The position numbers and the translations under genes were made by a program. Shown piece after piece: positions 4,411-26,852 of a DNA stretch of 28,510 nucleotides. Under the pieces are notes generated by a model. It was not told the origin of the DNA. It saw nothing but the letters and a program-made list of their open reading frames with translations, and searched no databases. Source of the DNA: a virus. How positions within the stretch are numbered: the first letter of the stretch is position 1; each line of letters opens with the position of its first letter. The stretch spans positions 1-28,510 of the IMG/VR virus record IMGVR_UViG_3300034283_000281; one strand, given 5' to 3'.

Positions 4411-5754
4411 TTAATTATCGACCTGAGCTTCGCCCCAACCATCACCGCTACTGTTTGCCCCTTGGCTACTCTTTGCTTTACCTTCTGAAAAAGTGGTAAA
4501 CCCAGCCGCAAAATCACCGTTACCTAACCGCTCGATAATACGTTCCGTGGCAGACGGGGCGTTTGCTACTTGTAACTGCACTTGATGGCCTGCCCTTGCA
4601 GTGGCGGCCTGCATCTGAGCGATGAGCAGTTGAACTGCATTACTCCGCTTCGAAAGTTCTATTTGAACAGCCCGGTCCTTCATAGCTTCAGCCAACGTAC
4701 CATATTTCATGGTCATTTCCATAGCCAAATTCGCGGCTTCTCGAGCAGCTTTATTACTTACCCCCTCCTGCTCAGCCAGCGCCTTAACAGCGTCACGCAC
4801 TTCAGCACGCTGCTCCTTAACCCCAGCCTCAAAATCGGGCAGTGCTGCGCCGACACCTGCGGTAGCAGATTGAAGTATAGAGCCCGGTGCATTTGCCATT
4901 GCAACACCGGCCCTAATCATCGCCATGTCGAGATTTTCCCGAGCACGTTTTTTCTGCTCTCCTTCGTCGAGGGACTTTTCCAGTTCCTTAGTAAGTCGCT
5001 CACTGTACTTAGTCTGCTGTGGGGCCAACTCCCTAATCATTGCCAAGTTATCCTTCGGCAACCTTGATACACCATACATAGCTGCCGGTATGCCTGAAAA
5101 CTCTGGGACGTTAAGCGGTATCGGAGCTTTAGCAGGTGTCGCGCCATAAACGTCAATCGGACTAGCTGCGCTCGCAGGTGGAACATATTCGCTGTCTAGC
5201 TGAGCTAGATATGCCTTTTCTGCTTCTTCTGCTGCTATTTCTTCCGGTGTTTTTTCCTTAACAGGACCACCCTCAAAAAACGCGACCAATCCGCCGCCAG
5301 CATAGCCGTCGTTAAATCCGCCGTTGCTAGGTTCATCGAACATACCGTCAGGAAGCGGTATATCAGAAAGACCACCGCCAGCCATATATGGGGGAACCAT
5401 ACCGCCTTCGGCCATAGCAGGCATTTCACCTTGTGGGGGGACCGCACCCATAGGTGGCGCAGCGTTCATAGGCGGCATAGCCGCAGCTTGTGGTGTAGCA
5501 CCAAGACCCGCAGGGGCACCCATGGGCGGCTGGGGTGGAGCGGGAGGCGCAAACGTCTGTTGAGCTACAGTCTGCTGGGGAGCGGCTTCCATCTGAGCAG
5601 CAGAACGCATGCGGTCAATAAACATACCAGCCAACGTACCAGCGGTAGGGTCAAGAATGCCCATCTGCATAGCTTCAGCGATCTTCTGCTTATTACCACC
5701 ATAGTCCTTAGCAATTTGCTCAGGGGACTGTAGATCGTACGGTTTCGTTTCCAT
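4411..5754 (-). CDS. Pro/Gly-rich and helical phage protein, internal-core candidate, 447 aa
   Basis: N-terminal helix (PEQIAKDYGGNKQKIAEAMQ, GILDPTAGTLAGMFIDRMR) is a conserved start. A disordered Met/Pro/Ala region follows (55-115), then three GG tags: MAEGGMV (114-120), MAGGGLS (124-130) and YAGGGLV (151-157), with FFEGG soon after. Residues 245-420 are mostly helix (KYSERLTKELEKSLDEGEQK, EVRDAVKALAEQ, NLAMEMTMKYGTLAEAM) with an inner Gly/Ala-rich hydrophobic patch (GVAMANAPGSILQ...). The start is one base after the previous stop (TAAgATG). Function is unknown; its neighbours suggest it is packaged in the virion. A DNA ejection role is inferred from the order, not shown by motifs. Confidence 0.74.
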   Translation of the reverse strand: METKPYDLQSPEQIAKDYGGNKQKIAEAMQMGILDPTAGTLAGMFIDRMRSAAQMEAAPQQTVAQQTFAPPAPPQPPMGAPAGLGATPQAAAMPPMNAAPPMGAVPPQGEMPAMAEGGMVPPYMAGGGLSDIPLPDGMFDEPSNGGFNDGYAGGGLVAFFEGGPVKEKTPEEIAAEEAEKAYLAQLDSEYVPPASAASPIDVYGATPAKAPIPLNVPEFSGIPAAMYGVSRLPKDNLAMIRELAPQQTKYSERLTKELEKSLDEGEQKKRARENLDMAMIRAGVAMANAPGSILQSATAGVGAALPDFEAGVKEQRAEVRDAVKALAEQEGVSNKAAREAANLAMEMTMKYGTLAEAMKDRAVQIELSKRSNAVQLLIAQMQAATARAGHQVQLQVANAPSATERIIERLGNGDFAAGFTTFSEGKAKSSQGANSSGDGWGEAQVDN

Positions 5755-5755
5755 C

Positions 5756-7774
5756 TTAAATTAACCCCGCCCGGTTAGCCGTGTTGTATATACCAGCCGC
5801 AGCAAGTCCGCCGCCCATAAGCTGGGAACCTAGAGAAGCACTCGGTGCATAAGCCGTCCTACTCACATTAGGTTCTACAGGGACACCACGAAGCAGGCTG
5901 CTATACTGCTGCAACTGTTCCATCGGATAACCCTGCTGACGCAGGAAGTCTTGATATGCCGTGTCGAGGTACTGCTGTTGTAGCGCCTGCTGCTGCGCCG
6001 CAGTCTGTGTCTGCTGACCGAACCGCGCAAGGTCTGCCTGCGAGCGTGCCGAACCGATATTGGTAAGGGTCTGACCCATCTGACCGGCCTGCCCAAGACC
6101 TGCAAGGCGCTGCTGCGCTCCAAACTGACGGGACTGCTCACGCATACGCTGGCGCTCAAGGTCTGCCTGCTGGTTGGCCCGAAGAGCTTCAAGTCCTGTA
6201 GTTGCACCCAGACGCTGAGTATCCAGCGCGGCGCTAAGGTTCTGCTGGCCCGTCGTAAGCTGTGCCTGCTGGTTGGCCAATGCTGCACGCATCGCCTGCT
6301 CGGAGTTAAGCCCTTGTGTCTGGAGTTGTGCTGCCAAGTTCTGGACGTTAGCCTGTGAAGCAGCGTCAAGGTTAGCAAGTGCCGTCTGCATACCCGTCTG
6401 AGTGCTAAGCTGCTGAGCCTGCATCTGGGCTTGTTGGTTTGCCTGCGCCCGTGTGACGTCCACACCCTGATTGGCCAATGCTGCCTTGAGCGCGTTGTCG
6501 GCGTTCATACCCTGAGCTTGGAACTGCTGGGCTTGGTTATTAACCGCAGCCTGCTGCTCGTTCGATAGGTTCTGCATCGCAACCTGAAGACCCTGCTGCG
6601 CACCAAGTTCTTGTACGCCGAGACGCGCCGCAAGGTTCTGTTGGCCTGTGGTGAGACCAGCTTGCTGATTAGCCAATGCTGCCCTCATGGCGTTATCCGC
6701 AGACATACCCTGTGCTTGGAACTGCATGGCCTGATTATTTACGTTGGCTTGCTGTTCGTTGGATAAGTTAGCCAGAGTCGCCTGTAGACCTGTCTGGGTG
6801 CCAAGCTGCTGCTGTTGGAGCGCTGCTTGGAGGTTCTCACGTCCGGCTGTCATACCCGCTGCACGGTCACGCTCAAACTGCTGCTGCGCACTTTCGTACG
6901 CTGCCTGACGACCACGAGCGTCGATATCACCAAGTTGAGTGCCAAGATTGCGTTCGCGCTCCAACCCAGCAAGAAGCTGACGAGACCCGCCATAGGTACC
7001 CTGACGCGCAGCGCCGAGGTCTTGGACAAGCTGCGACTGCTTCGCACTACGGATAGCTTCGCGCTTCTGTGGCTCCATTACGGCTTCCGCAAAAGGCGAC
7101 ATGTACTGCTGGGCCTGTGCTAAACCAAAAGCTTGCGGCCCTTCCATGCGGAACTGCTCAAGCGGCCCTTGGCCGTAGCTTGTCTGCGCAGCCTGCATCA
7201 TGGGAGCATTGACATCGTATCCACCAATGCGTTCGGCGGGGCTCATCTGGAATGCTTCGAGGTCTGGGCGGTAGCCCGACTGCGCGGCCTGCATATCCTG
7301 TGCCGACACGCCCTGTGCACCAACATCACGAGCGCCACCCATCATGTAAGCTTGTACCTGTGGGCTGAAGCCAGTCTGAGCAGCCTGCATCTGAGGCGAG
7401 CCGTATTGCTGCGCTTGTACGTTAGATGGCCCACTCATGCTGTACTGTTGGAGGTTGGGCATCCCGATCTGCTGTGCACCAAACTGACCGGCGTTATATT
7501 GCGAAGCTTGTAGTGAACCAAGACCTGCAGCGGAAGCCAAACTGCCAGCTTGCCCGAACTCACCCGGAGTCTGCTGGTTAAGGATGTTCTGTTGAAGCTG
7601 CTGCTGCTCAGGTGTGAACCCAGCAATGCGCTCTTGGCCATAGGTCTGATAAGGTGTAGTAAGCGCTGTACTTGCGCGCTGCATCATCCCTTCAAAATAA
7701 GGACGTGCATATTCAGGGAGAGTTGACTGGGTTATCTCCTGTTTAACCGGTTGACTGCTACCACCCTTAGCCAT
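5756..7774 (-). CDS. Gln/Ala-rich repeat protein, internal-core candidate, 672 aa
   Basis: The start MAKGGSSQPVKQEITQSTLP, then PYQTYGQERIAGFTPEQQQL, is a conserved opening in many phages. Residues 129-224 hold three 32-residue units beginning MQAAQ; 312-509 hold three exact 66-residue units, mostly helix of Gln, Ala and Asn (66 is 6x11), with a partial fourth (510-542). The C-terminus (AAQQQALQQQYLDTAYQDFL, GYPMEQLQQYSSLLRGVPV) is a recurrent phage signature. No membrane helix. A TTG-started longer frame (7786) was rejected: ATG 7774 has GGAGGA ahead and overlaps the upstream gene by 8 bases. The size and composition suit a long coiled-coil core protein such as T7 gp14 or gp15 (inference). 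Confidence 0.78.
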   Translation of the reverse strand: MAKGGSSQPVKQEITQSTLPEYARPYFEGMMQRASTALTTPYQTYGQERIAGFTPEQQQLQQNILNQQTPGEFGQAGSLASAAGLGSLQASQYNAGQFGAQQIGMPNLQQYSMSGPSNVQAQQYGSPQMQAAQTGFSPQVQAYMMGGARDVGAQGVSAQDMQAAQSGYRPDLEAFQMSPAERIGGYDVNAPMMQAAQTSYGQGPLEQFRMEGPQAFGLAQAQQYMSPFAEAVMEPQKREAIRSAKQSQLVQDLGAARQGTYGGSRQLLAGLERERNLGTQLGDIDARGRQAAYESAQQQFERDRAAGMTAGRENLQAALQQQQLGTQTGLQATLANLSNEQQANVNNQAMQFQAQGMSADNAMRAALANQQAGLTTGQQNLAARLGVQELGAQQGLQVAMQNLSNEQQAAVNNQAQQFQAQGMNADNALKAALANQGVDVTRAQANQQAQMQAQQLSTQTGMQTALANLDAASQANVQNLAAQLQTQGLNSEQAMRAALANQQAQLTTGQQNLSAALDTQRLGATTGLEALRANQQADLERQRMREQSRQFGAQQRLAGLGQAGQMGQTLTNIGSARSQADLARFGQQTQTAAQQQALQQQYLDTAYQDFLRQQGYPMEQLQQYSSLLRGVPVEPNVSRTAYAPSASLGSQLMGGGLAAAGIYNTANRAGLI
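6248..6841 (-). repeat. Three 198-bp units encoding 66-aa helical modules
   Basis: Three consecutive modules of exactly 66 codons, with a half module after them. Each ends ADNAxxAALANQ or SEQAMRAALANQ followed by a short linker. The period is a multiple of 11 (hendecads), consistent with right-handed coiled coil packing. Confidence 0.88.
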
Positions 7775-8201
7775 TCTGTCCTCCAAGACCCATTACGGGT
7801 AACTCATATACCTGCCATAGCATTTTATATCCATCGTCTTTGAAAGCACGGGCAAATCCGGGCCTACCCGAAGACTCGATGACATCGCAACTATTATCAC
7901 GTGCCCAACGTTGCAAAGTTTCAAGCATTGGGTCTTTCCAACTAAAACCTTCATCGCCACCGATAAATAGCATATCGAGGCACTTCTTGCGAGGGTACTG
8001 CCAAAAACGAGTAATGGTAACCCCAAGAATATCTTCGCCTTCAATCACTACCCACAGGTGTGCTGCTTCGTCGAGCACCGCATCAATTATATCTTCTGGT
8101 TCATACCGACCAAATGTATATTCCGCAGCCTTACTTATATGCGGGAACAGCTTGGGTAGAAGACCACCTACAAACTCAGCAGGGATGAGGCTAACTTCCA
8201 T
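7767..8201 (-). CDS. GNAT-like protein, T7 gp13-type internal virion candidate, 144 aa
   Basis: The fold looks like N-acetyltransferase: an N-terminal helix, a strand pair (HLWVVIEGEDILGVTITRFW), a mid strand (CLDMLFIGGDEGFSW), helix DPMLETLQRWARDNSC and a final SSGRPGFARAFKDDGYKM. The usual acetyl-CoA loop (Q/R-x-x-G-x-G/A) is replaced by GGDEGF, so catalysis is doubtful. The family I recall for T7 gp13 (internal virion protein A, DUF2833) is GNAT-like and structural. Gene order supports this: the next genes are a Gln/Ala-rich helical protein and a giant protein, as with T7 gp14 to gp16. It is coupled by TAATG and overlaps the next gene by 8 bases. An active host-modifying acetyltransferase is the alternative. 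Confidence 0.7.
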   Translation of the reverse strand: MEVSLIPAEFVGGLLPKLFPHISKAAEYTFGRYEPEDIIDAVLDEAAHLWVVIEGEDILGVTITRFWQYPRKKCLDMLFIGGDEGFSWKDPMLETLQRWARDNSCDVIESSGRPGFARAFKDDGYKMLWQVYELPVMGLGGQNG

Positions 8202-9796
8202 TATACAAGTCCACGACGCACTTTAGTGTCTTGGCCACGCTTGGCTTTCTTACGGGCTTTATGGGCCTTATTCATAAGCGAGTATAGTTTGTCCGCGCCC
8301 TTTTTTGGGTTGCCTTTACCAAGGCGGCGTACTGCATCTGCAGGCATCAGTACCTCATCACGTGCAACACGTGCTGGCTGGTCACGGCCTATACGAGCAG
8401 GGATACTATCACTTACTCCATCGCCCGGGCCGTTAATTGGACGCCCGCCAATTTTACGAAGCGCCTCCATGCCAGCATTGCTGCTGCCGTTGCCAATTTC
8501 AGATACCGTACGCGCATCAAGCACAAAGGCTCCGTCGGCTAGTTCGACTTCACCGCCCTTGGCGTAGTCTCCCTCCTCGGGGTCAACGCCACCCATATAC
8601 GGGGTGAGTATCTGACTGTAGCGGTTCTCGCCCTTCTTGGCCTTGGGATTAAGAACATTCTGCAGGATAGGTGTGCCCCGCTTAGTGCTGGAACCCGGCT
8701 GCACGACTTGCCCCTGCACGTTGTAAACTTCAGGCATATCTACGTCGAAGTAACGACGCTCCTTAGACGAGCCAAGTATATCGGCAGTGGAGTCGGCAAA
8801 CGTAGCTTTGCGCTGCTGCGCCGTGTATGGACCCTGATAAGCATTATCTATAACGCCGTCCGAACCTATACTGCCGCCTGAAGGGGTGGTTGCACTGGAT
8901 ATGTTGTTTAGGACGCCCATGCCTGCCATCATAGGCGCAGCTTTGGAAATCATACTCGGAGTGCCAGCGGGGAGGCCAGCGCGCACAGCTTGGCCGAAGC
9001 GCGAGCCTAAGCCACCTGTGAACTGTGCACCTGTTGTTGCCGTGGGCGCTACGCCTGTCATGGCCGCTTGTGTTCCTGAGCCAATGACGTTCCCACCCAT
9101 TATTGCTTGTGTCTGCACAGGGTTTAGCGCAGCCGCAGCCGGAGCACCGGGCATAGAGCCAGTTACGTTGATGGCATTTTCAACAGGAGCCGTACCCATT
9201 TTAGCTAGCCCTGCTGCGGCATTTGCACCTTGAGAAAGTCCCTGACCCATATTAGCACCGAAGAAACCAGCTTTATCTCCGAGCAAGCCAAAACCTGTTT
9301 CAGAAAGCTTACCACCAAGACCCGCCATACCAGCCATACCAGCGCCACCGAAGGCACCGAGACCGGCCATCAAGCCTTTCTTCAAGCTACCAGTACGTGC
9401 AAACTGACCTGCGCCTACGATACCAGCAGCAAGTGGGGCACCGACACCAGTAGCCGCTAGGGCTGCGCCAAGAATAGTGGGTAGGAGTTTACCAAGCCAG
9501 CCAGCTTCGGGGAGACCTGTTTGTGGGTTAATTGTGAGAGAGCCGCCTGTCGCCATAGCCAGACCTTGGAGGCTACTAACCTCACCGGGTGTCATATGAA
9601 CCAACATCTTGTCGTCACCGCGACCCATACTTTGCAGTTGTTGAGCCATTGGGTTGGCAAGAACCGAGAGACCGCCCTGCGAAGGCAGACCGCCAGACAT
9701 GCCCGGAACCTGCTGTCCAAGCACGGGAGGGTTACCAACTGGGGGCTGCCCAGTGTTTATTTCTGCGTATGTTGGCGGAGCAGCCTGCATGTCCAT
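8201..9796 (-). CDS. Gly/Ala-rich internal or tail protein with conserved ends, 531 aa
   Basis: Visible in order: a Pro-rich start; GDDKMLVHMTPGEVSSLQGL (60-79) with SLTINPQTGLPEAGW (86-100); a Gly/Ala/Leu-rich region (103-165) with hydrophobic stretches that could span or perturb a membrane; a low-complexity middle; YAKGGEVELADGAFVLDART (411-430); GPGDGVSDSIPARIGRDQPARV (457-478, conserved); MPADAVRRLGKGNPKKGADK (484-503) and a Lys/Arg-rich end. The MTPGEV...SLTINP...TG and GDGVSDSIPA...DQPA...V strings are common in phage proteins I know by sight. Function is unknown; position before the GNAT-like gene and the hydrophobic core suggest an ejection or internal-core protein. Stop overlaps the next start (TAATG at 8201). 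Confidence 0.75.
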   Translation of the reverse strand: MDMQAAPPTYAEINTGQPPVGNPPVLGQQVPGMSGGLPSQGGLSVLANPMAQQLQSMGRGDDKMLVHMTPGEVSSLQGLAMATGGSLTINPQTGLPEAGWLGKLLPTILGAALAATGVGAPLAAGIVGAGQFARTGSLKKGLMAGLGAFGGAGMAGMAGLGGKLSETGFGLLGDKAGFFGANMGQGLSQGANAAAGLAKMGTAPVENAINVTGSMPGAPAAAALNPVQTQAIMGGNVIGSGTQAAMTGVAPTATTGAQFTGGLGSRFGQAVRAGLPAGTPSMISKAAPMMAGMGVLNNISSATTPSGGSIGSDGVIDNAYQGPYTAQQRKATFADSTADILGSSKERRYFDVDMPEVYNVQGQVVQPGSSTKRGTPILQNVLNPKAKKGENRYSQILTPYMGGVDPEEGDYAKGGEVELADGAFVLDARTVSEIGNGSSNAGMEALRKIGGRPINGPGDGVSDSIPARIGRDQPARVARDEVLMPADAVRRLGKGNPKKGADKLYSLMNKAHKARKKAKRGQDTKVRRGLV

Positions 9797-9863
9797 TGCG
9801 ATATCCTACCTTGTACCTACGCTTATAGCGCCAATATGTCTAAAACTAAAGCCCTTACGCATA

Positions 9864-14972: not shown

Positions 14973-14981
14973 CTTCGTTCC

Positions 14982-15944: not shown

Positions 15945-15988
15945 TACTTAGCCTCCCTCCTTTCTGCGATTAGGGTATTAGGCGAATA

Positions 15989-16165: not shown

Positions 16166-16175
16166 AACAAATTCC

Positions 16176-16852: not shown

Positions 16853-16864
16853 ACTATTTCTCCT

Positions 16865-17242: not shown

Positions 17243-17243
17243 A

Positions 17244-20200: not shown

Positions 20201-21890
20201 TCAGGGTCGTAGCACCCGAACCACCGTTGCTTACAGGCAGCGTGCCGCTGACATGCGTCGTGAGGCCAATCTTGCCCCATGATGGAGGGTTGCTGACGCC
20301 GCCAGAGATGAGCGCGTTGCCGGTCGCCACATCAGCCAAAGAGCTTAGCGTGGTAGTCGCAGAGGCGTAGAGGATGTCGCCAACGGTGTAGCTGCTTATC
20401 CCAGTACCACCATTACCTACACCAAGGGTGCCGCTGACCTGCGTGGTGAGGCTGATTGTACCAGACAAGGCGCTGGTCGGAATAGTGGCCGTAGCCGTGA
20501 ACGCAGAAGTGCCGTTGCCGACGAGATAGCCCGTTAGCGAAGTTGCACCCGTACCACCGTTACCAACAGCCAGAGTGCCGGTAATATGCGTGGTCAGGCC
20601 GATTTTGCCGTAGGAAGGATCAGCGCCAGCACCGCCAGAGATAAGTGCGTTACCAGTGGCTACGTCAGCTATTACACCTATCGTCGTAGACGAGGTCGCG
20701 TATAGCAAGTCGCCAGCCGTGTAGCTGCTCTGCCCTGTGCCGCCTGCCGTTGCGGGTAGCGTGCCTGTGGTTAGCGTACTGGAAGACGTCGCGTAAACCG
20801 CGCCGCCAGTTGTAAAACTGGTGAGACCTGTACCGCCTAGCGTCGTAGCTACAGGTGAGGTGAGGCTGAATGTCGTGCCAGTCAGTGTCAGGCCGGTGCC
20901 AGCACTGTAAATCTGCGCAGATGAAATCTGAGCAAACGTGATTGCCGTCGTACCAAAGACAATCGTGCCAACGGTGTTGCAAGTATAGGTCTCGCCTGCG
21001 CCGGTCGTACCCTGTTGGACAAAGACAGTTGAGCCTTGGCTCAGACCATCTGGGCTAGCGTTGACGTAAGTGTCCGCGTCACTGGAACGCGTCAATACCC
21101 AGTTAGTCGAGCCACTACCTACGCTTGTCACGACGTAGATGCCGTTCTGGGTCTCATCGGTCTGTTCGTAAACCAAGACACGGTCAGCGACACTAAGCGT
21201 CACACCGTCAATAACCAGTGCAGCTTGAGTGCCTGCATTGGTCAGGGTAGCGCCAACGCCAGACGAACCATTGTTGTATGTCGCGTTCAGGTTGATCGGT
21301 GACTCGACGCGCACTGGCTGGTGGAAGTGAATACCGGCGGACGTCTGGGTGTCTACGTACTGTTTGGTCGCCACTTGCAGGTTAACGGTCGGGTCACCAG
21401 CAACGGTAACCTGCGTCAGCGACGGAGACATCGTATATGACGGAGTTGTGCCGCCAATCAGGACGCCTGTACCTGTCGCAAGCATCGCTGTGGTGTTGGC
21501 CGCAGTCTGGTAAGGAATGGAACCCGCTGCACCGCCAGCTAGGTTAGCCGCAGTGGTTGCGGCTAGCGCATTGCCATAGTCTTCCGTGACAGCCTTTTCG
21601 GATGGGTAAGTGACGAAAACGTCCTTGGTGCCCGCAGCAAAATCTACAAGCGCACCACCATTGCTCGACGCCAATACCGTGTTACGCGCTAGGGTCGTAC
21701 CGGAAGACGTGTAGGTGCCAACGCCGACTTCCCACTGGGTGTCGCTGTTAATCGTATAATACGTCGTGTTACCGTTACCGATTACCGAAAAGTTCTGATA
21801 CCCGGTCGGCGCGGTCCCGCTGAGCGTTACCGTACCTGTACCAGTTGTAGCAGTGGTATCCCTAACGCGGTCAGCGAGGACAAGAGCCAT
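17244..21890 (-). CDS. Large tail fibre with C-terminal S74 intramolecular chaperone, 1548 aa
   Basis: This is the receptor-binding fibre candidate. The N-terminus (MALVLADRVRDTTATTGTGT) is a conserved virion-attachment type. Residues about 320-640 hold Gly/Thr repeats of the LxxxNGGTG and GNGTSAF kind. From about 750 on, a YD-x-x-N-x-x-Y-x-x-DP motif recurs six times (A755, A870, A1017, S1147, A1232, A1356). A module near 910-1000 (GVRYVQG, FYWPRT, SVRFRESGTWSAWSKIYAG) looks like a pyocin-knob-type binding domain. The last 90 residues are peptidase S74: S1459-D-A-R-L-K1464 gives the Ser-Lys dyad, followed by NVGVIAQEM and a terminal coiled coil. Trimerisation and self-cleavage before S1459 are expected. 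ATG 21890 follows AAGGA. Confidence 0.88.
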   Translation of the reverse strand: MALVLADRVRDTTATTGTGTVTLSGTAPTGYQNFSVIGNGNTTYYTINSDTQWEVGVGTYTSSGTTLARNTVLASSNGGALVDFAAGTKDVFVTYPSEKAVTEDYGNALAATTAANLAGGAAGSIPYQTAANTTAMLATGTGVLIGGTTPSYTMSPSLTQVTVAGDPTVNLQVATKQYVDTQTSAGIHFHQPVRVESPINLNATYNNGSSGVGATLTNAGTQAALVIDGVTLSVADRVLVYEQTDETQNGIYVVTSVGSGSTNWVLTRSSDADTYVNASPDGLSQGSTVFVQQGTTGAGETYTCNTVGTIVFGTTAITFAQISSAQIYSAGTGLTLTGTTFSLTSPVATTLGGTGLTSFTTGGAVYATSSSTLTTGTLPATAGGTGQSSYTAGDLLYATSSTTIGVIADVATGNALISGGAGADPSYGKIGLTTHITGTLAVGNGGTGATSLTGYLVGNGTSAFTATATIPTSALSGTISLTTQVSGTLGVGNGGTGISSYTVGDILYASATTTLSSLADVATGNALISGGVSNPPSWGKIGLTTHVSGTLPVSNGGSGATTLTGYLKGNGTSAFTASATIPSGDITGAALTKADDTNVTLTLGGSPSTALLAATSITAGWSGQLAVSRGGTGNSTLTSGYLLKGNGVSPTSASVIYDDGTNVGIGNAAIPYTTSGRTVFNVNGTSSAIISLQTSGSNRGYFYGDGSTIAIEAESGCAIKLNTVSAQPMTFFTSNTERLSINSSGNVTANVDMRAPIFYDSNNTSYYLDPAGSSVLGIITAQSTNDAQLYLNGNGTSWAGIQWTDVSGSDNMWYNGSTSTFAIGGGGSVVANKKLHINGGTTIGSGIAASASGTNSLLVEASITANQMYAQIFYDSQNGAYYVDPASTSNLNDLNVASGNVLGAIATFNNMNQTHGQQSDFNAITNFGVRYVQGSANGPGISGATQYYGFSLGLGSNYPYSDFGSQFYWPRTAVGGLPYPSVRFRESGTWSAWSKIYAGWADAPSGATFAASGDFRAPIFYDSNNTAYYVDPASGSVLNRLVSITGAGNSNGGNLQLGDKDVNTAKWSVLTGAHYAGSSEPKGVMLIGSYSASGNNSLSIGGNIYEANPATYIAFYTATTATHPTGGFNRLNINGSGNVTAEVDIRSPIYYDSNNTAYYLDPASRSILGNISVITGATECGIRFRGDTLDFVGRYGGYMSLYNQTTGGEFKILDAGYFNFNQYAVNEASFRAPIFYDQNDTGYYLDPNGFSNLNRANFIAQSTDTSASSIYLGGQNVTTSGSLWINFHSDGDTNYRIGKPAGAWTQPLEFRFYTGQRFKASASYGGFQFIDFNTNGVVFDMANGGSFTRSIVAFYAPIMYDNDNSAFFVDPNSTSVLSTVRAATIQHSSGNRAITLNGSTWTEFCDVNGSTKLWLGGSGDPNNYYNAGIHYFRNTSSSTTMTIDSSGNVVATANVTAYSDARLKKDVETIGDALGLVGKMRGVRYTRIDTEKRNVGVIAQEMLEVIPEVVHQGTGDDDTLSVAYGNLVGVLIEAIKELEARVAELEGK
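17758..19640 (-). repeat. Six-copy YDxxNxxYYxDP motif inside the large fibre
   Basis: Six copies of a motif of about 22 residues, roughly [AS]PI-x-YD-x-N-x-[ST]-x-YY-[LV]-DP-x-x-x-S-x-L, lie at residues 755, 870, 1017, 1147, 1232 and 1356 of the fibre. The spacing is irregular (115, 147, 130, 85 and 124 residues), so they are boundaries between variable modules and not a tandem array. Several copies are preceded by an SSGNV or GSGNV string. The motif is familiar from fibres of other aquatic phages. Confidence 0.85.
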
Positions 21891-21899
21891 TAGTTTTCC

Positions 21900-22379
21900 T
21901 TATGCGATACGGATAATGGCCGTCGTGTTTGTGGCCGTCGGGAAGATAATCGTAAAATCACCATCCGTCGAGGTCTTATCCGAACCAAAATCTAACACAG
22001 CCACAGCAGCGTTCGTCAGCGTAGTGTTCGCGTTCGAGTTAGCCGAAGGAGTCGTGTTATAAATCAGCGCGCCACGAGCCGTAATCGTCGCGTTAGCAAA
22101 GGTCAGGTCACCGAAATCGGTAAAGCCCGTACCAGACGAAGCTGTATTATCCGACGTCACAACACCAAGGCGCGTCAGCGTACCGCCGCCAGCGGTGTAG
22201 TTCGTACCCGAAGATGAAACTTCTTGGCTGGATGTATACGCCGTAGTGTTGGCATCTAGCGAAGCGGACGAAGTGTACAGCGACAGCTTGAAAGTGTCGC
22301 CGCCGGTAACCCGGAAATCGTGCACGGCCAGCATAAGCTCGGCCTTAAAGCTGGTGCACATCGCTTGAGTAATTGGCAT
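21900..22379 (-). CDS. Beta-rich phage tail or head structural protein, 159 aa
   Basis: The 159-aa product starts MPITQAMCTSFKAELMLAVH and continues with DTFKLSLYTSSASLDANTTA, AYTSSQEVSSSGTNYTAGGG, ARGALIYNTT and AVAVLDFGSDKTST then FTIIFP. Every one of these strings is typical of a widespread small phage structural protein that I know by sight but not by function. Few charges, many Thr/Ser/Gly and alternating strands suit a beta-sandwich virion component. A strong AAGGAGG precedes ATG 22379. It lies directly upstream of the large tail fibre, so it may be part of the tail or fibre base. Confidence 0.78.
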   Translation of the reverse strand: MPITQAMCTSFKAELMLAVHDFRVTGGDTFKLSLYTSSASLDANTTAYTSSQEVSSSGTNYTAGGGTLTRLGVVTSDNTASSGTGFTDFGDLTFANATITARGALIYNTTPSANSNANTTLTNAAVAVLDFGSDKTSTDGDFTIIFPTATNTTAIIRIA

Positions 22380-22391
22380 CTTAAGGCCTCC

Positions 22392-22673
22392 TTATGTATC
22401 GAGTATGGCGGTTAGCTCTGGATGCCCCGCCTGTTTGAATTTATTAACCAGAGTTACGTTATGGGACCGCACAGCCTCGTGCATATAGTGGATGAGCACC
22501 TGACGGATGCTGTCCTTGAAGGCTTCGGCCTGATCGCGGATAGCAGGGTGTGCCTGACTGCCCACATAGATGATTTTGTCGAGTGCGCGCTCAGCAGTTT
22601 CCTCGGGCGTGAAACCACGTCCTTCGGTCGCCATGACCATCACATTTCCGACGTCGCTGAGTCCGTTAAACAT
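22392..22673 (-). CDS. Conserved small helical phage protein, 93 aa
   Basis: The product begins MFNGLSDVGNVMVMATEGRG, continues FTPEETAERALDKIIYVG then AHPAIRDQAEAFKDSIRQVL, IHYMHEAVRSHNVTLVNKF and ends QAGHPELTAILDT. TEGRG-x-TPEE-x-AE-x-ALDKII-x-VG is a familiar string from uncharacterised phage structural clusters. It is all alpha-helical and near neutral in charge, unlike the basic small proteins upstream. TAGGAG lies six bases before the ATG at 22673, so it can initiate alone. Function unknown; its place between adaptor and tail genes suggests a tail assembly helper. Confidence 0.72.
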   Translation of the reverse strand: MFNGLSDVGNVMVMATEGRGFTPEETAERALDKIIYVGSQAHPAIRDQAEAFKDSIRQVLIHYMHEAVRSHNVTLVNKFKQAGHPELTAILDT

Positions 22674-22682
22674 ATATAGCTC

Positions 22683-23363
22683 CTACTGGACCGGGTAGCG
22701 GGCTTGACCGCTACGATACATATCCTGACGGTTTTTGCCTTCACCAAGCTGTTTGAGCATCGCCATCGCTTCGTCATACCGCTTCTGGTAGCCTGCGATG
22801 ATATCTGCTTCGCCCTTCATGAAAGTGTACGCTTCGAGCAGTGATCCGTAAAGCAAAACGCTATCGAAGTTATCACCCAACCACGACGTACCTGCCGTCA
22901 CAATCGAAGGCGGGTAGTAGAAATAGTGTAGTTCGACTGCATAGTTCGAGTCCGGCGTCGGCCCCAAGATGTACGAGTTCTCGTCAAAATAAGCATAGTG
23001 TGTGGGTATGCCTGTCGTGCTTGGGTTCGGAAACGCTTGCCGGATGTAACTCACATCCTTGTTCAGCAAATACTCATACCGTCCGGTCGCGTCGATAACG
23101 GCCAGAGAGAAGTTGGCCAGCCAGTCTGAAGGTACCGAAAGGTACTTGTTGCCCGACGTCATGTTACCCGTAACGTTCTTGCGGAGGTCAAGGAGTTGCA
23201 CCGTATTGAAGATGCGTTGCTCGGCCTCCTGAATGAACGTGTTGATCTGTTCGGTAGACGTCAGCGTCACCGTGCTGGAGCCGTCAGAGCCGGTCCATGA
23301 GGTGTTGGGGAAGTCGTTTTCGACGTACCCTTTGATCGTTTCGAACAGTTCAGCGTAATTCAT
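22683..23363 (-). CDS. Phage adaptor protein (SU10-type head-tail adaptor)
   Basis: This 226-aa protein should form the ring joining the portal to the tail nozzle. It starts MNYAELFETIKGYVENDFP, then has an N-terminal helix (INTFIQEAEQRIFNTVQLLD), LRKNVTG, a strand block (YLSVPSDWLANFSLAVID, YEYLLNKDVSYIRQAFPNP), ILGPTPDSNYAVELHYFYYP, WLGDNFDSVLLYGSLLEAYT and a C-terminal helix with R-x-D-x-YRSGQ. The order and the strings AEQRIFN-x-VQ, LNKDV-x-I-x-x-AFP and LGDNFDS-x-L match the SU10 adaptor family as I recall it, and the length is usual. Translation is coupled to the 46-aa gene by TAATG. This is one of the surer calls in the window. Confidence 0.85.
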   Translation of the reverse strand: MNYAELFETIKGYVENDFPNTSWTGSDGSSTVTLTSTEQINTFIQEAEQRIFNTVQLLDLRKNVTGNMTSGNKYLSVPSDWLANFSLAVIDATGRYEYLLNKDVSYIRQAFPNPSTTGIPTHYAYFDENSYILGPTPDSNYAVELHYFYYPPSIVTAGTSWLGDNFDSVLLYGSLLEAYTFMKGEADIIAGYQKRYDEAMAMLKQLGEGKNRQDMYRSGQARYPVQ

Positions 23364-23503
23364 TATGCCAACTTCTTGCTGCTATGCGTGCCCTTAGTCG
23401 CCGCACCGGTTCCGCGTGTTTTCACGGTCTGGGTGTTAGGTACGTTGTTCGGATAACCGTTATTGTTCTTCACAATCGGCACCGTTTTTGGTTTATAGTC
23501 CAT
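23363..23503 (-). CDS. Very small basic protein, 46 aa
   Basis: The 46-aa product reads MDYKPKTVPIVKNNNGYPNN then VPNTQTVKTRGTGAATKGTH and SSKKLA. A longer frame from a TTG at 23548 exists, but it would overlap the upstream gene by 44 bases, whereas ATG 23503 sits one base after the upstream stop (TAAtATG). Its own TAA overlaps the adaptor start (TAATG at 23363). No domain is recognisable. The NG-x-NNVPNT-x-TVKTRG-x-GAATKG string is familiar from similarly placed small phage genes. It may be a small virion component or help couple translation into the adaptor gene. Confidence 0.65.
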   Translation of the reverse strand: MDYKPKTVPIVKNNNGYPNNVPNTQTVKTRGTGAATKGTHSSKKLA

Positions 23504-23504
23504 A

Positions 23505-23696
23505 TTATTTACCCCGCGAAGATTTCTTCTGGTTGGCGATTTTGGCAAGATTGCGACCTAGAGCCTTCATCTGTGCGTTGGTCTTACCGCCTTTAGCAAG
23601 CTTAGTTAGGGGCTGGCCCTTGTGTTTCGCACGCTCGTGTTTGTGCACGGCCTTTGCCACAGTAGCCTTGTCCTGCTTCATGTCTTTCTTATCCAT
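23505..23696 (-). CDS. Small Lys/His-rich basic protein, 63 aa
   Basis: The product starts MDKKDMKQDKATVAKAVHKH and continues ERAKHKGQPLTKLAKGGKT, ending ANQKKSSRGK. It is strongly basic with several His. LAKGGKT matches the GG tag found in its neighbours. The VHKHE-x-x-x-H-x-G-x-PLTKL-x-KGG core is a conserved small phage protein of unknown function that I recognise. I choose ATG 23696, preceded by GGAGA, over an in-frame GTG at 23699 that overlaps the upstream TAG. One base separates its stop from the next ATG. A DNA-binding or head-internal role is possible from charge only. Confidence 0.7.
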   Translation of the reverse strand: MDKKDMKQDKATVAKAVHKHERAKHKGQPLTKLAKGGKTNAQMKALGRNLAKIANQKKSSRGK

Positions 23697-23698
23697 CA

Positions 23699-24091
23699 CT
23701 AATTCTCCGTCTCAATCGTTACGGTCCCTACTTGACCATTACCTAATAGCGTATTTGGAAGACCAAATAAACCCAAAGGATTATTTAACCCTACCGGGTC
23801 CCACCCCCACTGAATTACGCGACTACCGTCAGTAGGGTTATTGTTCACGTTCAGACCCGCTTGAAAATAGCTGTTGTCCGGACGTGGGTCGCGCAACGCT
23901 TGTGGGTCGTCCACTGGATACATACCCAACTGAAGCTGCGGCTGGTCCGGCTCCCAGCATGTAGGGCACACGAGAATATTGATATTCTTGGTCTTAATGA
24001 CGAGCCGCTTGAGCTCTTTCAGCTTATAGCGAAAGTTACAGCGGTCGCACTGGGCGATTGCCCATTTACCAGATGCAAACCGATTAGGCAC
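23699..24091 (-). CDS. Zinc-ribbon phage structural-cluster protein, 130 aa, GTG start
   Basis: Residues 1-55 read as a two-knuckle zinc ribbon: C15-DR-C18 and C42-PT-C45, separated by a Lys-rich stretch (RYKLKELKRLVIKTK). The start string PNRFASGKWAIAQCDRC and the following WEPDQPQLQLGMYPV-DDPQALR are conserved in a phage family I recognise but cannot name. The C-terminal half is Asn/Gly/Pro-rich without clear motifs. GTG at 24091 is the only sensible start: it lies two bases after the previous TGA and gives the conserved N-terminus. The Shine-Dalgarno is weak, so it probably depends on reinitiation. A role in head or neck assembly or DNA contact is inferred. Confidence 0.75.
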   Translation of the reverse strand: MPNRFASGKWAIAQCDRCNFRYKLKELKRLVIKTKNINILVCPTCWEPDQPQLQLGMYPVDDPQALRDPRPDNSYFQAGLNVNNNPTDGSRVIQWGWDPVGLNNPLGLFGLPNTLLGNGQVGTVTIETEN

Positions 24092-24094
24092 AAA

Positions 24095-24805
24095 TCACCG
24101 GAAATACTGACGAGGCGCGATGCGCAGTGGCGCTTTCTCGCGGTCCTCATCAGCAGCCTGTTGCCAGAGTTCTTCATACTGCGCTTTAAGGCTCATAGAA
24201 CGCTCAAGCGCACCGGGTACCTTCAGGGATAGGTGATACGCGAGACCAGCCACCAGACAAGGGAGGAACCTAAACGGTATATCTTGCGTAGTAACACCAT
24301 CACCAGCATCCTGTAAGCGGCGCAAGCGCCAGTAGACAAAGGTATAATAGTTGCTCTGGTCTGGCGCTGGCCACACGTTGATCTGCGGATTTGCAACGCC
24401 ATCCACCGGATAGTCTGCACCTGACTGGCGGTTAATCCATACTTGGATAGGCCGACCCTGCGCGTTCTTATTCGGGATGGTCGAGTATGTGTCGATGCTG
24501 ATACGGTTGATGGTGATATCAGTCTGTTGCTGCCCAGTCTGGGTGCGCACGACATGCTCAAGTAAGTCGATGGTGTCGATGGGTAAATCGTAAACAATCT
24601 GCCCCTGCACAAGTGGTATCGAGCCCTGCTCGATTGTCCACAGGTTTATGCCACGGTTTGCCCACTCGATGGTAAGCAGGTTCAGGCTGCGCCGCGCCGT
24701 ACGCAGGTCATAGCCCGTGCGGAGTTCTGCACCGCAGCGCTCAAAAGCCTCTTCGACTAGGTCGTTGAGGTTCAGGTTAAATGCTGTAGTGCCACTTGTG
24801 GTCAT
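24095..24805 (-). CDS. Head-tail connector or tail accessory-like protein, 236 aa
   Basis: The 236-aa protein starts MTTSGTTAFNLNLNDLVEEA, continues with FERCGAELRTGYDLRTARRS and LNLLTIEWANRGINLWTIEQ, then a beta-rich middle (VYDLPIDTIDLLEHVV, GRPIQVWINRQ, NPQINVWPAPDQSNYYTFVY) and a C-terminal helical part (PCLVAGLAYHLSLKVPGALE and YEELWQQAADEDRE). The layout of N-terminal helices, a central barrel-like part giving W-P-x-PD, and a C-terminal helix matches the gp4/gp6/adaptor-like connector proteins of short-tailed phages. Its position just upstream of the adaptor (22683-23363) agrees. Family name is by fold resemblance and memory. It probably sits between portal and tail nozzle. Confidence 0.72.
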   Translation of the reverse strand: MTTSGTTAFNLNLNDLVEEAFERCGAELRTGYDLRTARRSLNLLTIEWANRGINLWTIEQGSIPLVQGQIVYDLPIDTIDLLEHVVRTQTGQQQTDITINRISIDTYSTIPNKNAQGRPIQVWINRQSGADYPVDGVANPQINVWPAPDQSNYYTFVYWRLRRLQDAGDGVTTQDIPFRFLPCLVAGLAYHLSLKVPGALERSMSLKAQYEELWQQAADEDREKAPLRIAPRQYFR

Positions 24806-25080
24806 TACTTACCTTTCTTGAAACCCTTCAAGAGTTGAGCAAACCGTGCACGTTGACCTAGCTTACCGGGAGCCTTGGCGGCTTTGGCAAGCTTTGCTGC
24901 TGGGATTTTCTTTCCCTTAGGAGTGCCAAGCTCCGCACGGAGTGCGCCGGGTTTCTTGATCGCTTTTTGGATGAAGTTCGTGCTACCGCCTTTTTTAGCA
25001 TAACCCATCTTATTCCGCACTTCTGTGGGCAGTTTTGCCAGCCCGGGATTGGCTTTTTTGTCGGTCGGTTTCAGTGCCAT
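24805..25080 (-). CDS. Small Lys/Ala-rich basic protein, 91 aa
   Basis: Function unknown. The 91-aa protein has MGYAKKGGSTNF (25-36), KKPGALRAELGTPKGKKIPA, an Ala/Lys helix (AKLAKAAKAPGKLGQRARF) and ends AQLLKGFKKGK. The KPGALR...LG...KG-x-KIP then GK-x-GQRARFA pattern recurs in small phage proteins I have seen, always unannotated. The amphipathic Lys/Ala helix resembles histone-tail or nucleoid-type sequence, so nucleic acid binding is a fair guess but unproven. Both ends are in TAATG overlaps (25080 and 24805), coupling it to the connector-like protein that follows. Confidence 0.72.
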   Translation of the reverse strand: MALKPTDKKANPGLAKLPTEVRNKMGYAKKGGSTNFIQKAIKKPGALRAELGTPKGKKIPAAKLAKAAKAPGKLGQRARFAQLLKGFKKGK

Positions 25081-25334
25081 TATCTAAACCCTTTCGTCTT
25101 TTTTGCAATAGTCTTAGGCTGCTTTACGAACTGCTTCCCCTTAGCCTTACCAACCCGCTTAGCTTTTGTCGTGGCTGCATATTCCGCAGGGGACAAAGAC
25201 TTTATAGCGTTCTCAGGTAGGTACCGCTCACCTGTCGCCTTGGACCCCTGCGTCGATGGTTTACCGCTTTTGGTCCGCCACTTCTGCTTGGTCCAATTCT
25301 TCAGGCTCTGCTGGGATTTAGCAAGTCCGCTCAC
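25080..25334 (-). CDS. Small basic phage protein, KWRTKSGKPS family, 84 aa
   Basis: The start codon is GTG at 25334, overlapping the previous TGA (GTGA). The protein opens SGLAKSQQSLKNWTKQKWR, then TKSGKPSTQGSKATGERYLP, SLSPAEYAATTKAKR and a basic tail ending KQFVKQPKTIAKKTKGFR. This ordered set is a conserved module I remember from uncultured phages and from proteins of large eukaryotic viruses, sometimes fused to the GQWSARKAQ module encoded just upstream here. Function is unknown. Its conserved W, R and K residues suggest binding to nucleic acid or a polyanion. The TAA overlaps the next ATG at 25080 (TAATG). Confidence 0.75.
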   Translation of the reverse strand: MSGLAKSQQSLKNWTKQKWRTKSGKPSTQGSKATGERYLPENAIKSLSPAEYAATTKAKRVGKAKGKQFVKQPKTIAKKTKGFR

Positions 25335-25609
25335 TTGTATCCGCCGCCCTTCTTCTTATACTGCATCGCCAACATCTGGGCTTTACGGGCTGACCACTGA
25401 CCCGGTGCGCCGCCTTTACCGCCCGCTTTGATCGCGTTAAATAAAGACTTGCGCATACCGGGCTTCGTGTAATTGCCAGCTTCGTTGACCTTGGACTCGC
25501 CGCCCTTGGCGTACACCTTCACTTCGTCGGGATTATCCTTACGACGAATTGTTTTCGCCCCCGGCATTTTTGAGGGGTTTATGGCCCCCATACCCCGACA
25601 AGCGCGCAT
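25331..25609 (-). CDS. Small basic protein with GGxPGQWSARKAQ motif (DUF5872-like), 92 aa
   Basis: The 92-aa product starts MRACRGMGAINPSKMPG, has YAKGGES (33-39) and NYTKPGMRKSLFNAIKAG, and ends with GGAPGQWSARKAQMLAMQY and KKKGGGYK. The string GQWSARKAQ followed by a K-x-GGGY end is the signature I remember for DUF5872-like proteins, found in phages and in giant viruses; no function is known. The start is the ATG of a TAATG overlap at 25609. Its TGA overlaps the next start, a GTG, as GTGA. Net charge is strongly positive. Together with its neighbour at 25080-25334 it appears to be one half of a two-part conserved unit. Confidence 0.75.
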   Translation of the reverse strand: MRACRGMGAINPSKMPGAKTIRRKDNPDEVKVYAKGGESKVNEAGNYTKPGMRKSLFNAIKAGGKGGAPGQWSARKAQMLAMQYKKKGGGYK

Positions 25610-25989
25610 TAGCAGGTTTTCCCACCACGCTTGTAACCAGCCATGCCGCCCATTGCCAGCATCTTGCCTTTGGTCTTGCCCTTCTTGGCAATACCATCAG
25701 CCGACTTGTGGCCAGCAACAAGACCGCCCGAAGCGTAACATTTGCCACCACCGGCCTTCTTGACCATTGCACGGCCCTTGGTGTCAGCCGATTTCTTTTT
25801 CATAGCAGCGCCAAACTTAGTTGCCATTTTTCCACCTTTCGCCATACCTGTAGAACGATTTCCACGCCCGATAGCCGCAGCATTTTCTGGCGTAACCTTG
25901 AGGTCCTTTACAGACTTACGGAACTTAGCATCCGACGCACGATCAGCAGCAGTTGGCTGCGGGGGCATCGACTTTTTCTTCTTATCCAT
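25609..25989 (-). CDS. Lys/Gly-rich small protein with repeated GG tags, 126 aa
   Basis: Function unknown. An N-terminal basic leader (MDKKKKSMPPQPTAADRAS) and a helical segment (DAKFRKSVKDLKVTPENAAA) precede a basic, Gly-rich tail with MAKGGKM (49-55), YASGGLV (85-91), ADGIAKKGKTKGKML (97-111), AMGGMAGY and KRGGKTC at the end. I place the start at ATG 25989, which overlaps the upstream TGA as TGATG; a GTG three bases earlier is in frame but less likely. The stop overlaps the next start as TAATG. The ADG...KGKTKG string is shared with the 117-aa protein at 26499-26852. Two cysteines lie in the tail. DNA condensation or packaging is a guess from charge only. Confidence 0.7.
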   Translation of the reverse strand: MDKKKKSMPPQPTAADRASDAKFRKSVKDLKVTPENAAAIGRGNRSTGMAKGGKMATKFGAAMKKKSADTKGRAMVKKAGGGKCYASGGLVAGHKSADGIAKKGKTKGKMLAMGGMAGYKRGGKTC

Positions 25990-26237
25990 CACGACTTTGT
26001 CCTTCCTATCTCTTCTACTTTAGCTTCAAGGCGCTCGAAGGCCCGGTCGAACCGATCCCCCAGCTTATCGACCAGTGTGTTCATCTCCGAACGAGTCACA
26101 TGATCCCGAGCAACTTCCTCGCGGGTTTTATTGAGTAGGATGCCAATACGGTCCAACTCGTCAATCTTGCCCTTAAACAAGAAGCCCATAACCGCCACCA
26201 CTGCGCTCAGTACGATGTTCCATATCATCATTTCCAT
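25989..26237 (-). CDS. Membrane-anchored coiled-coil protein, 82 aa
   Basis: The N-terminus (MEMMIWNIVLSAVVAVMGFLF, residues 1-21) is one hydrophobic helix. The rest is charged and heptad-like (DELDRIGILLNKTREEVA, then MNTLVDKLGDRFDRAFERLE), predicted to be a long coiled coil. The layout resembles XhlA-type accessory lysis proteins and a small phage family with the string LLNKTREE-x-ARD that I remember, but no catalytic motif is present and the lysis genes are 9 kb away. It could be a membrane-tethered oligomer acting in lysis or in genome entry. The gene begins one base after the previous stop, and its TGA overlaps the next ATG as TGATG. Confidence 0.65.
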   Translation of the reverse strand: MEMMIWNIVLSAVVAVMGFLFKGKIDELDRIGILLNKTREEVARDHVTRSEMNTLVDKLGDRFDRAFERLEAKVEEIGRTKS

Positions 26238-26238
26238 G

Positions 26239-26499
26239 TTAGCAGTCCCACTTACGTAACGATAGAGCTTTACGAGTAGGACGACCTTTCTCGTCCTTCA
26301 TTGGCCCCGGCATACCCGACATACGTGCACAAAAGCTCTTGCGTCGTGCAGCGGACTTAGGTGACTTCTTTGCCTGCTTGGCCGAGACTGGAGGTTTGAG
26401 GTTCATCCCCTGCGCCTTTGCAGACGCACGACCCTTAGCGTTCAAGCCGCCCTTGGGGTTCTTACCTTCCTTACGTGTCCAAGCAGGCGTCTTAGCCAT
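26239..26499 (-). CDS. Small basic phage protein, DUF6321-like, 86 aa
   Basis: This Lys/Arg-rich 86-aa protein begins MAKTPAWTRKEGKNPKGGLN and continues with AKGRASAKAQGMNLKPPVS, RRKSFCARMSGMPGPMKDEKG and a C-terminal SLRKWDC. This ordered set (W-x-RKEGKNP-x-GGLNAKGR, then RRKSFCARM, then SLRKW-x-C) is how I remember the DUF6321 family, seen in many phages and some large eukaryotic viruses, with no known function. The family name is from memory. The ATG at 26499 shares its A with the upstream TAA. A single base separates its stop from the next ATG (TAAcATG). The strongly basic character suits binding DNA or an acidic virion surface. Confidence 0.75.
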   Translation of the reverse strand: MAKTPAWTRKEGKNPKGGLNAKGRASAKAQGMNLKPPVSAKQAKKSPKSAARRKSFCARMSGMPGPMKDEKGRPTRKALSLRKWDC

Positions 26500-26852
26500 T
26501 ATACAAACCGCCCTTTCGTCTTACCCTTGGTAGCGCAGCCATCGGCGCGCTTGGAGGCAGTTGAACCGCCCTTAGCCATCTTCTTAACCTTGCCACCCTT
26601 GCGCATCATCGGTGCGCCTGCGGGAACTTCCTCTGCCATCATGACTTCTTCCGCCATAGGACGACGGCGCATACCGCTTCCTTTAGCTGCCTCGCGGGCG
26701 AGGAGTTTCTTGCGCTGGTTAGCAGCTAGCATTGGCATAAGGCCACCCATAGGACCCATGGCATTACCCAGTTTGGCCAGTCCTTTGCCGAATAAACCCT
26801 TACCGCTTATGGCACCTGCCATGGGGGAGATGTCGCCTAATTTAATACCCAT
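26499..26852 (-). CDS. Small basic protein with KGG and ADGxAxKGKTKG tags, 117 aa
   Basis: Function unknown. The N-terminal 45 residues are Gly/Met/Leu-rich and mildly hydrophobic (GAISGKGLFGKGLAKLGNAM, then GGLMPMLA). A basic segment NQRKKLLAREAAK follows, then an acidic Met/Glu patch (PMAEEVMMAEEV, 66-76). The basic tail carries RKGGKV (84-89) and MAKGGST (92-98) and ends ADGCATKGKTKGRFV (103-117). The same ADG-x-A-x-KGKTKG string occurs in the 126-aa protein three genes downstream. Start and stop are both in TAATG overlaps (26852, 26499), so translation is coupled on both sides. The C-terminal tag is a motif I remember from many uncharacterised phage proteins. A virion or DNA-binding role is inferred. 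Confidence 0.7.
   Translation of the reverse strand: MGIKLGDISPMAGAISGKGLFGKGLAKLGNAMGPMGGLMPMLAANQRKKLLAREAAKGSGMRRRPMAEEVMMAEEVPAGAPMMRKGGKVKKMAKGGSTASKRADGCATKGKTKGRFV

What the first reader, a model, noticed from the sequence alone, without database searches (positions are those of the whole stretch)
4411..26852. One short [M/Y]A-x-GG tag recurs in at least eight unrelated virion-cluster proteins
Seen directly: YAGGGLV, MAEGGMV and MAGGGLS in the 447-aa protein; MAKGGSS at the very start of the 672-aa protein; MATGGSL and YAKGGEV in the 531-aa protein; YAKGGES in the 92-aa; MAKGGKM and YASGGLV in the 126-aa; MAKGGST and RKGGKV in the 117-aa; YAKKGGST in the 91-aa; LAKGGKT in the 63-aa protein. 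The proteins share no other obvious homology and differ in charge and length. A shared short tag among proteins of one operon suggests a common use: docking to a shared partner, a packaging signal into the capsid, a hinge, or a processing site. I know such strings occur widely in uncultured phage proteins but know no assigned role.
Basis: partly seen in the sequence, partly recalled or inferred. Interest (0 to 1): 0.82.

Follow-up and report, generated by a model that had tools for sequence, protein, structure and literature searches.

The report
Shared tag on phage cargo proteins
A group of water-borne bacterial viruses puts the same short protein tag on many unrelated proteins that are probably carried inside the virus particle; it may be an address label for cargo injected into the host cell.

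Summary
[YMFLW]A-x-GG occurs 14 times in 32 window proteins against 2.3 by shuffling; 0 of 2000 shuffles reach it. In nine relatives outside the discovery genome the tag is at chance in shell/tail proteins (8 vs 7.7) and opposite-strand proteins (7 vs 8.0), but enriched in putative ejection proteins (42 vs 9.4) and in the small-gene island between capsid and tail adaptor (52 vs 5.9). In most, not all, orthologue families its GG is among the best-kept columns; in the two proteins modelled it lies in low-confidence segments. In the island it is often half of a C-terminal cassette (AKGGS-x(n)-ADGxAxKGKTKG) that ends 304 ORFs with roughly 100 body clusters. Best reading: a lineage-specific address for proteins carried inside the head, working like, but not shown homologous to, the T4 capsid-targeting sequence. 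Against it: 12 of 16 named relatives show little or no excess, several with the same head genes; no partner and no particle proteomics are at hand.

The parts
4411..5754 (-). 447-aa putative ejection protein with three tags
   Evidence: Position after the stabilization-protein gene and next to the giant protein; no Pfam/PHROG match. Tags in pLDDT<50 linker 102-165.
5284..5304 (-). tag YAGGGLV (res 151-157)
   Evidence: tag at the same column in 22 of 24 non-redundant orthologues, GG columns 100%
5365..5385 (-). tag MAGGGLS (res 124-130)
   Evidence: 21 of 24
5395..5415 (-). tag MAEGGMV (res 114-120)
   Evidence: 12 of 24
5756..7774 (-). 672-aa putative ejection protein, tag MAKGGSS at residues 1-7 (7754-7774)
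   Evidence: tag in only 7 of 19 orthologues
8201..9796 (-). 531-aa putative ejection protein with two tags
   Evidence: tags fall in (81-85) or at the edge of (411-415) pLDDT<50 segments
9536..9556 (-). tag MATGGSL (res 81-87)
   Evidence: 38 of 41 orthologues, GG invariant
8546..8566 (-). tag YAKGGEV (res 411-417)
   Evidence: 33 of 41 orthologues
23505..23696 (-). 63-aa Lys-rich protein, tag LAKGGKT at 23580-23600
   Evidence: 15 of 19, GG invariant
24805..25080 (-). 91-aa Lys-rich island protein, YAKKGGST at 24979-25002
   Evidence: tag in 14 of 26
25331..25609 (-). 92-aa island protein (phrog_17747), YAKGGES at 25493-25513
   Evidence: 8 of 14; YKxGG forms in further members
25609..25989 (-). 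126-aa island protein with MAKGGKM, YASGGLV, LAMGGMA, YKRGGKT
   Evidence: YASGG column 29 of 32, the best-kept part of a fast-changing protein (median column 0.38)
25669..25737 (-). cassette YASGGLVAGHKSADGIAKKGKTK
26499..26852 (-). 117-aa island protein with MRKGGKV and the C-terminal cassette
   Evidence: tag in 15 of 23
26502..26579 (-). C-terminal cassette MAKGGSTASKRADGCATKGKTKGRFV
   Evidence: same cassette ends 304 ORFs in related loci
25080..25334 (-). 84-aa Lys-rich island protein without tag (phrog_14910); counter-example
   Evidence: tag in 0 of 12 orthologues
26239..26499 (-). 86-aa DUF6321 island protein without tag; counter-example
   Evidence: PF19846 E 7.4e-26; tag in 1 of 8 orthologues

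Best explanation
The tag, core [YMF]-A-x-G-G-x-[VATLI] (A sometimes K), is a short linear motif that marks proteins to be carried inside the head of this lineage of roughly 60-kb, short-tailed-phage-like viruses. In the procapsid an internal component (most likely the scaffold, or the portal barrel) would bind the tag in flexible segments of otherwise unrelated proteins, so that ejection proteins and a changing set of small basic or multidomain proteins are enclosed before DNA enters and leave with the DNA at infection. In the island genes the tag has grown into a C-terminal cassette, AKGGS-x(n)-ADGxAxKGKTKG. It works like the T4 capsid-targeting sequence: constant address, variable cargo. Shown: enrichment, confinement to these gene classes, conservation, cassette on many bodies. 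Inferred: that these proteins are inside the particle, that the tag puts them there, and the partner.
For: Excess over shuffling. Class test in nine genomes without the discovery genome: ejection 42 vs 9.4, island 52 vs 5.9, shell/tail 8 vs 7.7, other same-strand 12 vs 5.9, opposite strand 7 vs 8.0 (with the discovery genome). GG columns at the 85th percentile or above in 10 of the tag sites. Distinct cassettes: 95, of which 86 have the tag within 25 residues upstream and 77 lie within 15 residues of the C-terminus. 280 distinct bodies fall into 102 clusters (74 singletons; one chained cluster of 103). Copies within a locus keep residues but differ in codon at 49% of identical residues; 8 of 285 pairs are >=95% identical in DNA. 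Tag codons are free at wobble positions. Nearest solved precedents, from passages read: T4 internal proteins are diverse defence proteins with only the CTS in common (PMC3012670), and P22 scaffold is needed for ejection proteins to enter the procapsid (PMC4992974). In a neighbouring group the tagged proteins carry ART-PolyVal, InPase, M15 and GNAT domains, the kinds that Iyer et al. predict to be packaged and injected (PMC5512222, passages).
Against: 12 of 16 named relatives show little or no excess, among them CRP-901, HTVC023P and Caulobacter RW, which have the same GroES/capsid gene block; phiM5, whose internal proteins were detected in particles, lacks it in them. So such phages fill their heads without it. 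Tag kept in only 7 of 19 of the 672-aa family and 14 of 26 of the 91-aa family. Two island families and the giant 2315-aa protein lack it. Distant InPase proteins are near chance (18 vs 10.0) as are their neighbours (20 vs 9.4). No partner, no proteomics of this lineage. The class labels 'ejection' and 'island' rest on position and relatives' annotation.
Confidence: 0.45

Rival explanations
1. Flexible spacer or unfolding break: the tag is a small-residue hinge between modules that lets cargo be threaded through the portal and tail; no specific partner.
For: Tags in low-confidence segments of both models; 25 of 25 core tags outside matched domains in 11 proteins, 8 of them exactly 23 residues after the M15 match and 4 exactly 13 before the ART match (the proteins are mostly homologous, only the best stretch per family was located). 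crAss001 gp45, a mass-spectrometry-confirmed cargo protein, has loose tags at residues 17, 260 and 559, outside the resolved parts 214-245 and 425-552 (3 vs 0.66 expected, weak).
Against: Aromatic/Met and Ala/Lys before GG are kept; many tags sit at a protein end, where nothing is linked; a general mechanical need would not be limited to one lineage.
Confidence: 0.2
2. Nucleic-acid or phosphate binding: the island proteins are histone-like counter-ions for packaged DNA and the cassette (GxxxxGKT) is a phosphate-binding loop.
For: Net charge +15 to +25 in window tagged island proteins; GxxxxGKT in the cassette by definition; T4 internal-protein lysines touch DNA phosphates (PMC3012670 passage).
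Against: Position x is often D, E, G, A, S, H or T and ejection proteins with tags are acidic or neutral; no P-loop or DNA-binding family matched in ten tagged proteins from relatives.
Confidence: 0.15
3. Neutral module traffic: the cassette spreads by recombination among island genes and the 5-residue tags are its remnants, without a function of their own.
For: Island genes look like shuffled modules; the cassette scan by its nature finds only copies that kept the residues.
Against: Codons differ at half of the identical residues and tag columns outlast their surroundings in most families.
Confidence: 0.1
4. Processing site: a protease cuts after GG, as adenovirus protease (recalled consensus (M/I/L)xGG) or a prohead protease would.
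For: GG and interdomain position.
Against: 0 of 10 genomes match Peptidase_S78 and S49 (controls rang); S77 and C48 also 0 of 10 but no control rang, so those two are inconclusive. The residue two before GG is A/K, not M/I/L. Tags at residue 1 and near C-termini would free only tiny peptides.
Confidence: 0.06

Closest known systems
T4 capsid-targeting sequence (CTS) on internal proteins
   Same: short shared signal on otherwise diverse, Lys-rich proteins of a changing gene set (passages of PMC3012670, PMC9391042)
   Different: tag is internal, N- or C-terminal here; no T4-type prohead protease found (search inconclusive); no sequence relation tested; packaging not shown
P22 ejection (E) proteins gp7, gp16, gp20 and their scaffold-dependent entry
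   Same: putative ejection genes lie behind a stabilization-protein gene; a separate scaffold gene is present
   Different: no sequence match of the tagged proteins to P22 proteins was found; no such tag is reported in the passages read
Polyvalent proteins of phages (Iyer et al. 2017)
   Same: in MW202675 and IMG/VR relatives the tags lie on proteins with ART-PolyVal, InPase, M15, GNAT domains
   Different: window proteins have none of these domains; distant InPase proteins have the tag near chance; the paper's text has no 'glycine' or 'linker'
Encapsulin cargo-loading peptides (recalled)
   Same: C-terminal peptide that sends unrelated cargo into an HK97-fold shell
   Different: no encapsulin here; sequence unrelated as far as recalled; not tested

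Membership tests
T4 CTS | N-terminal position | tested here: not met
   Tags are mostly internal or C-terminal; only the 672-aa protein and some 'MKK[YF]xxGG' island starts are N-terminal
T4 CTS | cleaved by a gp21-type prohead protease (PF03420) | tested here: inconclusive
   0 of 10 genomes, but no control genome rang
T4 CTS | shared by diverse proteins that are packaged | tested here: inconclusive
   diversity met; packaging not testable here
Polyvalent proteins | several disparate effector domains in one polypeptide | tested here: not met
   window tagged proteins: no Pfam domains; met only in relatives MW202675 and L315-L341
Adenovirus/ASFV-type GG processing sites | M/I/L two residues before GG (recalled consensus) and a C5/C48-type protease | tested here: not met
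   A or K in that place; Peptidase_C48 0 of 10, control silent
P-loop NTPase | Walker A within a P-loop fold | tested here: not met
   GxxxxGKT string present but no P-loop family in ten proteins scanned; fold not modelled
P22-like short-tailed phages | tail adaptor, stabilization protein, portal, separate scaffold, ejection genes | tested here: met
   tblastn to records annotated tail adaptor / stabilization protein; gene order; scaffold and ejection roles inferred

The most novel reading that the evidence does not exclude
The lineage runs a T4-internal-protein-like system with its own, undescribed address: one short motif/cassette encloses ejection proteins, multidomain effectors and a fast-changing island of small effectors, so the tag alone predicts, from sequence, which dark-matter proteins these phages inject into their hosts.
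Probability: 0.28. Interest if true: 0.82.

Novelty: new variant of a known kind. Interest (0 to 1): 0.62.

Why it matters
If the tag is a cargo address, it gives a sequence rule to pick out proteins delivered by uncultured aquatic phages, most of which match no family, and it opens a direct test: fuse the cassette to a reporter and ask whether procapsids enclose it. It would also add a second, independent example of a constant address with variable cargo beside T4. If it proves a mere spacer, the strict confinement to interior-class genes would still need explaining.

Tried and rejected
Composition: rejected by shuffles. DNA-level element: wobble positions of the tag codons are free. Recent copying: 8 of 285 within-locus cassette pairs are near identical in DNA (overlapping contigs are in part counted twice, and the pattern itself selects kept residues). 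General trait of polyvalent proteins: distant InPase proteins 18 vs 10.0 and their neighbours 20 vs 9.4, near relatives of MW202675 (>=66% identity) 16 vs 2.3 and neighbours 57 vs 6.3 (I gave it 60 of the 80 loci). Protease. Solved structures: 447- and 531-aa proteins nothing convincing; cassette profile hit only designed repeat proteins through 'KFETGGSV' repeats. Fold searches of the two weak models: 0 matches at E<=0.001. Window peptides by tblastn in phage records: no match or 3 records covering under half. Papers: 0 for ejection proteins with glycine-rich motif; 182 hold one of six tag strings, 30 listings seen, none on this tag; listings likewise; absence in print is claimed for these searches only. 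First gene caller lost small genes and was replaced; the second still clips some starts and misses some genes.

Dropped or weak rows: class test one search leaves out G001 as discovery genome; for G012 the MCP-adaptor interval was wrong (contig permuted), so its island genes count as 'other'. Genomes G003 and G009 are 87% identical in the stabilization protein, the widest pair 42.5%. Cassette loci L099 and L122 were not re-scored (82 of 84 scored; 81 carry lineage genes, L298 none).

Full report
What was found. The window is a 28.5-kb IMG/VR virus record. Its genes, nearly all on the minus strand, match a group of about 60-kb phages; a 63.7-kb relative, G001, is 100% identical in the 640-aa protein and shows the whole order: terminase, portal, GroES-like, a 316-aa acidic protein that I take for the scaffold, capsid protein, small genes, adaptor, tail, stabilization protein, then three proteins and a 2315-aa protein. 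Named relatives at 30-48% identity include DSL-LC04, Pag-Yong1, CRP-901 and HTVC023P. I call the 531-, 672- and 447-aa and giant proteins putative ejection proteins from position and relatives' labels ('DNA transfer protein', 'internal virion protein'); no family matched the first three.

Is the tag above chance? Yes: 14 against 2.28 expected, 0 of 2000 shuffles; the narrower [YMFL]AK(K)GG 7 against 0.11; GG alone is not in excess. Gene calls are mine.

Where is it? Across nine relatives (G001 left out) the core [YFM][AK]x(1-2)GG gives: ejection 42 vs 9.4 (23 of 35 proteins), island between capsid and adaptor 52 vs 5.9 (28 of 84), shell/tail 8 vs 7.7 (7 of 155), other same-strand 12 vs 5.9 (11 of 114), opposite strand 7 vs 8.0 (7 of 327). 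The 'other' excess includes the 63-aa family behind the adaptor and G012, whose interval could not be set. With G001 and homology labels: 49 vs 10.6, 66 vs 6.5, 10 vs 8.9, 5 vs 5.6, 7 vs 9.8.

Is it conserved? In non-redundant orthologues: 447 aa 22, 21 and 12 of 24 for its three tags; 531 aa 38 and 33 of 41; 63 aa 15 of 19; 126 aa 29, 17 and 13 of 32; 117 aa 15 of 23; 92 aa 8 of 14; 91 aa 14 of 26; 672 aa 7 of 19. The GG columns are at or above the 85th percentile of their protein at most sites, but at the 76th, 73rd and 42nd for MAEGG (447), YAKKGG (91) and MAKGG (672). Consensus over 453 distinct contexts: Y/M/F, A, any (K in 40%), G, G, any, V/A/T/L/I; Gly and Ala codons vary at the third base. 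Models of the 447- and 531-aa proteins are weak (mean pLDDT 63.6 and 57.6, 24 and 32 sequences); the tags lie in, or in one case at the edge of, segments below 50, which fits a linear motif in a flexible segment but may partly reflect shallow alignments.

The cassette. In island proteins the tag is often followed by ADGxAxKGKTKG near the C-terminus: 95 distinct occurrences, 86 with a tag within 25 residues, 77 within 15 residues of the end. A 32-row alignment has invariant G8, G9, D17, G18, G23, K24, T25 (rows were chosen by me). Over two locus sets 304 ORFs end in it; their 280 distinct bodies form 102 clusters at E 1e-3 or 135 at 1e-6, with one chained cluster of 103 or 95. Within loci, copies agree in residues (median 0.80; the search pattern fixes several) yet use different codons at 1065 of 2193 identical residues. 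In 84,980 cellular genomes 4 of 29 stretches were confirmed, three beside lineage genes.

How far it reaches. Of 16 named relatives, four show an excess: DSL-LC04 (tags at the start of a PcfJ-family protein, in two putative ejection proteins and small genes), MW202675, MW202545 and, weakly, Pag-Yong1. Twelve show little or none: CRP-901, HTVC023P (8 vs 3.8 with the widest pattern, largely Gly runs), HTVC027P (loose form 11 vs 5.1), Caulobacter RW, phiM5, OspP_OH, MW202879, MW202711, MW202496, Octadecabacter DB2, MJing1, CV-1-33. In MW202675 four large neighbouring proteins near the portal are tagged (loose form); two carry GNAT-M15-ART-PolyVal and InPase domains, and homologues with M15 and ART-PolyVal keep tags between domains: 25 of 25 core tags outside the matched stretches in 11 proteins (p 0.0008 if independent, which they are not). 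Distant InPase proteins are near chance. So the tag belongs to a lineage, not to injected proteins in general. In crAss001 (97,065 of 102,679 bases scanned) only gp45 had more than one loose tag, 3 vs 0.66; that protein is seen in particles (PMC10172136, passages). I count this as weak.

How it most likely works. Confinement to interior-class genes, freedom of position, conservation in flexible segments, and a constant end on changing bodies are what a packaging address would show. T4 is the model: internal proteins differ while the CTS is kept (PMC3012670 passage), and they carry counter-defence functions (PMC9391042 passage). In P22 the scaffold is required for ejection proteins to enter (PMC4992974 passage), which makes the scaffold the likeliest reader. 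Shown: enrichment, class confinement, conservation, cassette spread. Inferred: presence in particles, signal function, partner. Related phages that lack the tag show that it is not a general need, and two island families without it (0 of 12, 1 of 8) show that it does not mark all neighbours.

Verdict. A real, lineage-specific motif confined to putative cargo genes; packaging address most likely (0.45), spacer next (0.2). No paper found in the searches made describes it.

Noticed in passing
window 26239-26499 (-): DUF6321 protein; the same domain forms the C-terminus of long PHROGs (e.g. phrog_3477, 928 aa), so it looks like another mobile end module of phage proteins.
   Followed up: no
L118:7831-8316 (+), residues 1-56: N-terminal module MPSTSAKQAKFMRAVAHSP... 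matches the start of two PHROGs labelled virion structural protein.
   Followed up: no
window 26502-26579 and 25669-25737: The cassette contains a GxxxxGKT string like a Walker A motif, without a P-loop family match.
   Followed up: partly
G007:37717-38652 (-): A homologue of the 316-aa presumed scaffold carries FAEGGSAK near its N-terminus.
   Followed up: no
L301:316-8978 (+): MW202675 has four consecutive large tagged proteins after the portal with GNAT, M15, ART-PolyVal and InPase domains.
   Followed up: partly
window 1-4395 (-), continued in G001:17255-24202: 2315-aa protein without the core tag; weak match to phrog_2206 'virion RNA polymerase' over residues 1057-1238, no Pfam match in the part scanned.
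   Followed up: no
window 26852-27589 (-): A glycosyltransferase-like gene sits at the head of the island.
   Followed up: no
L298:6252-8090: Cassette in a Patulibacter MAG contig without lineage genes, possibly a chimeric contig.
   Followed up: no
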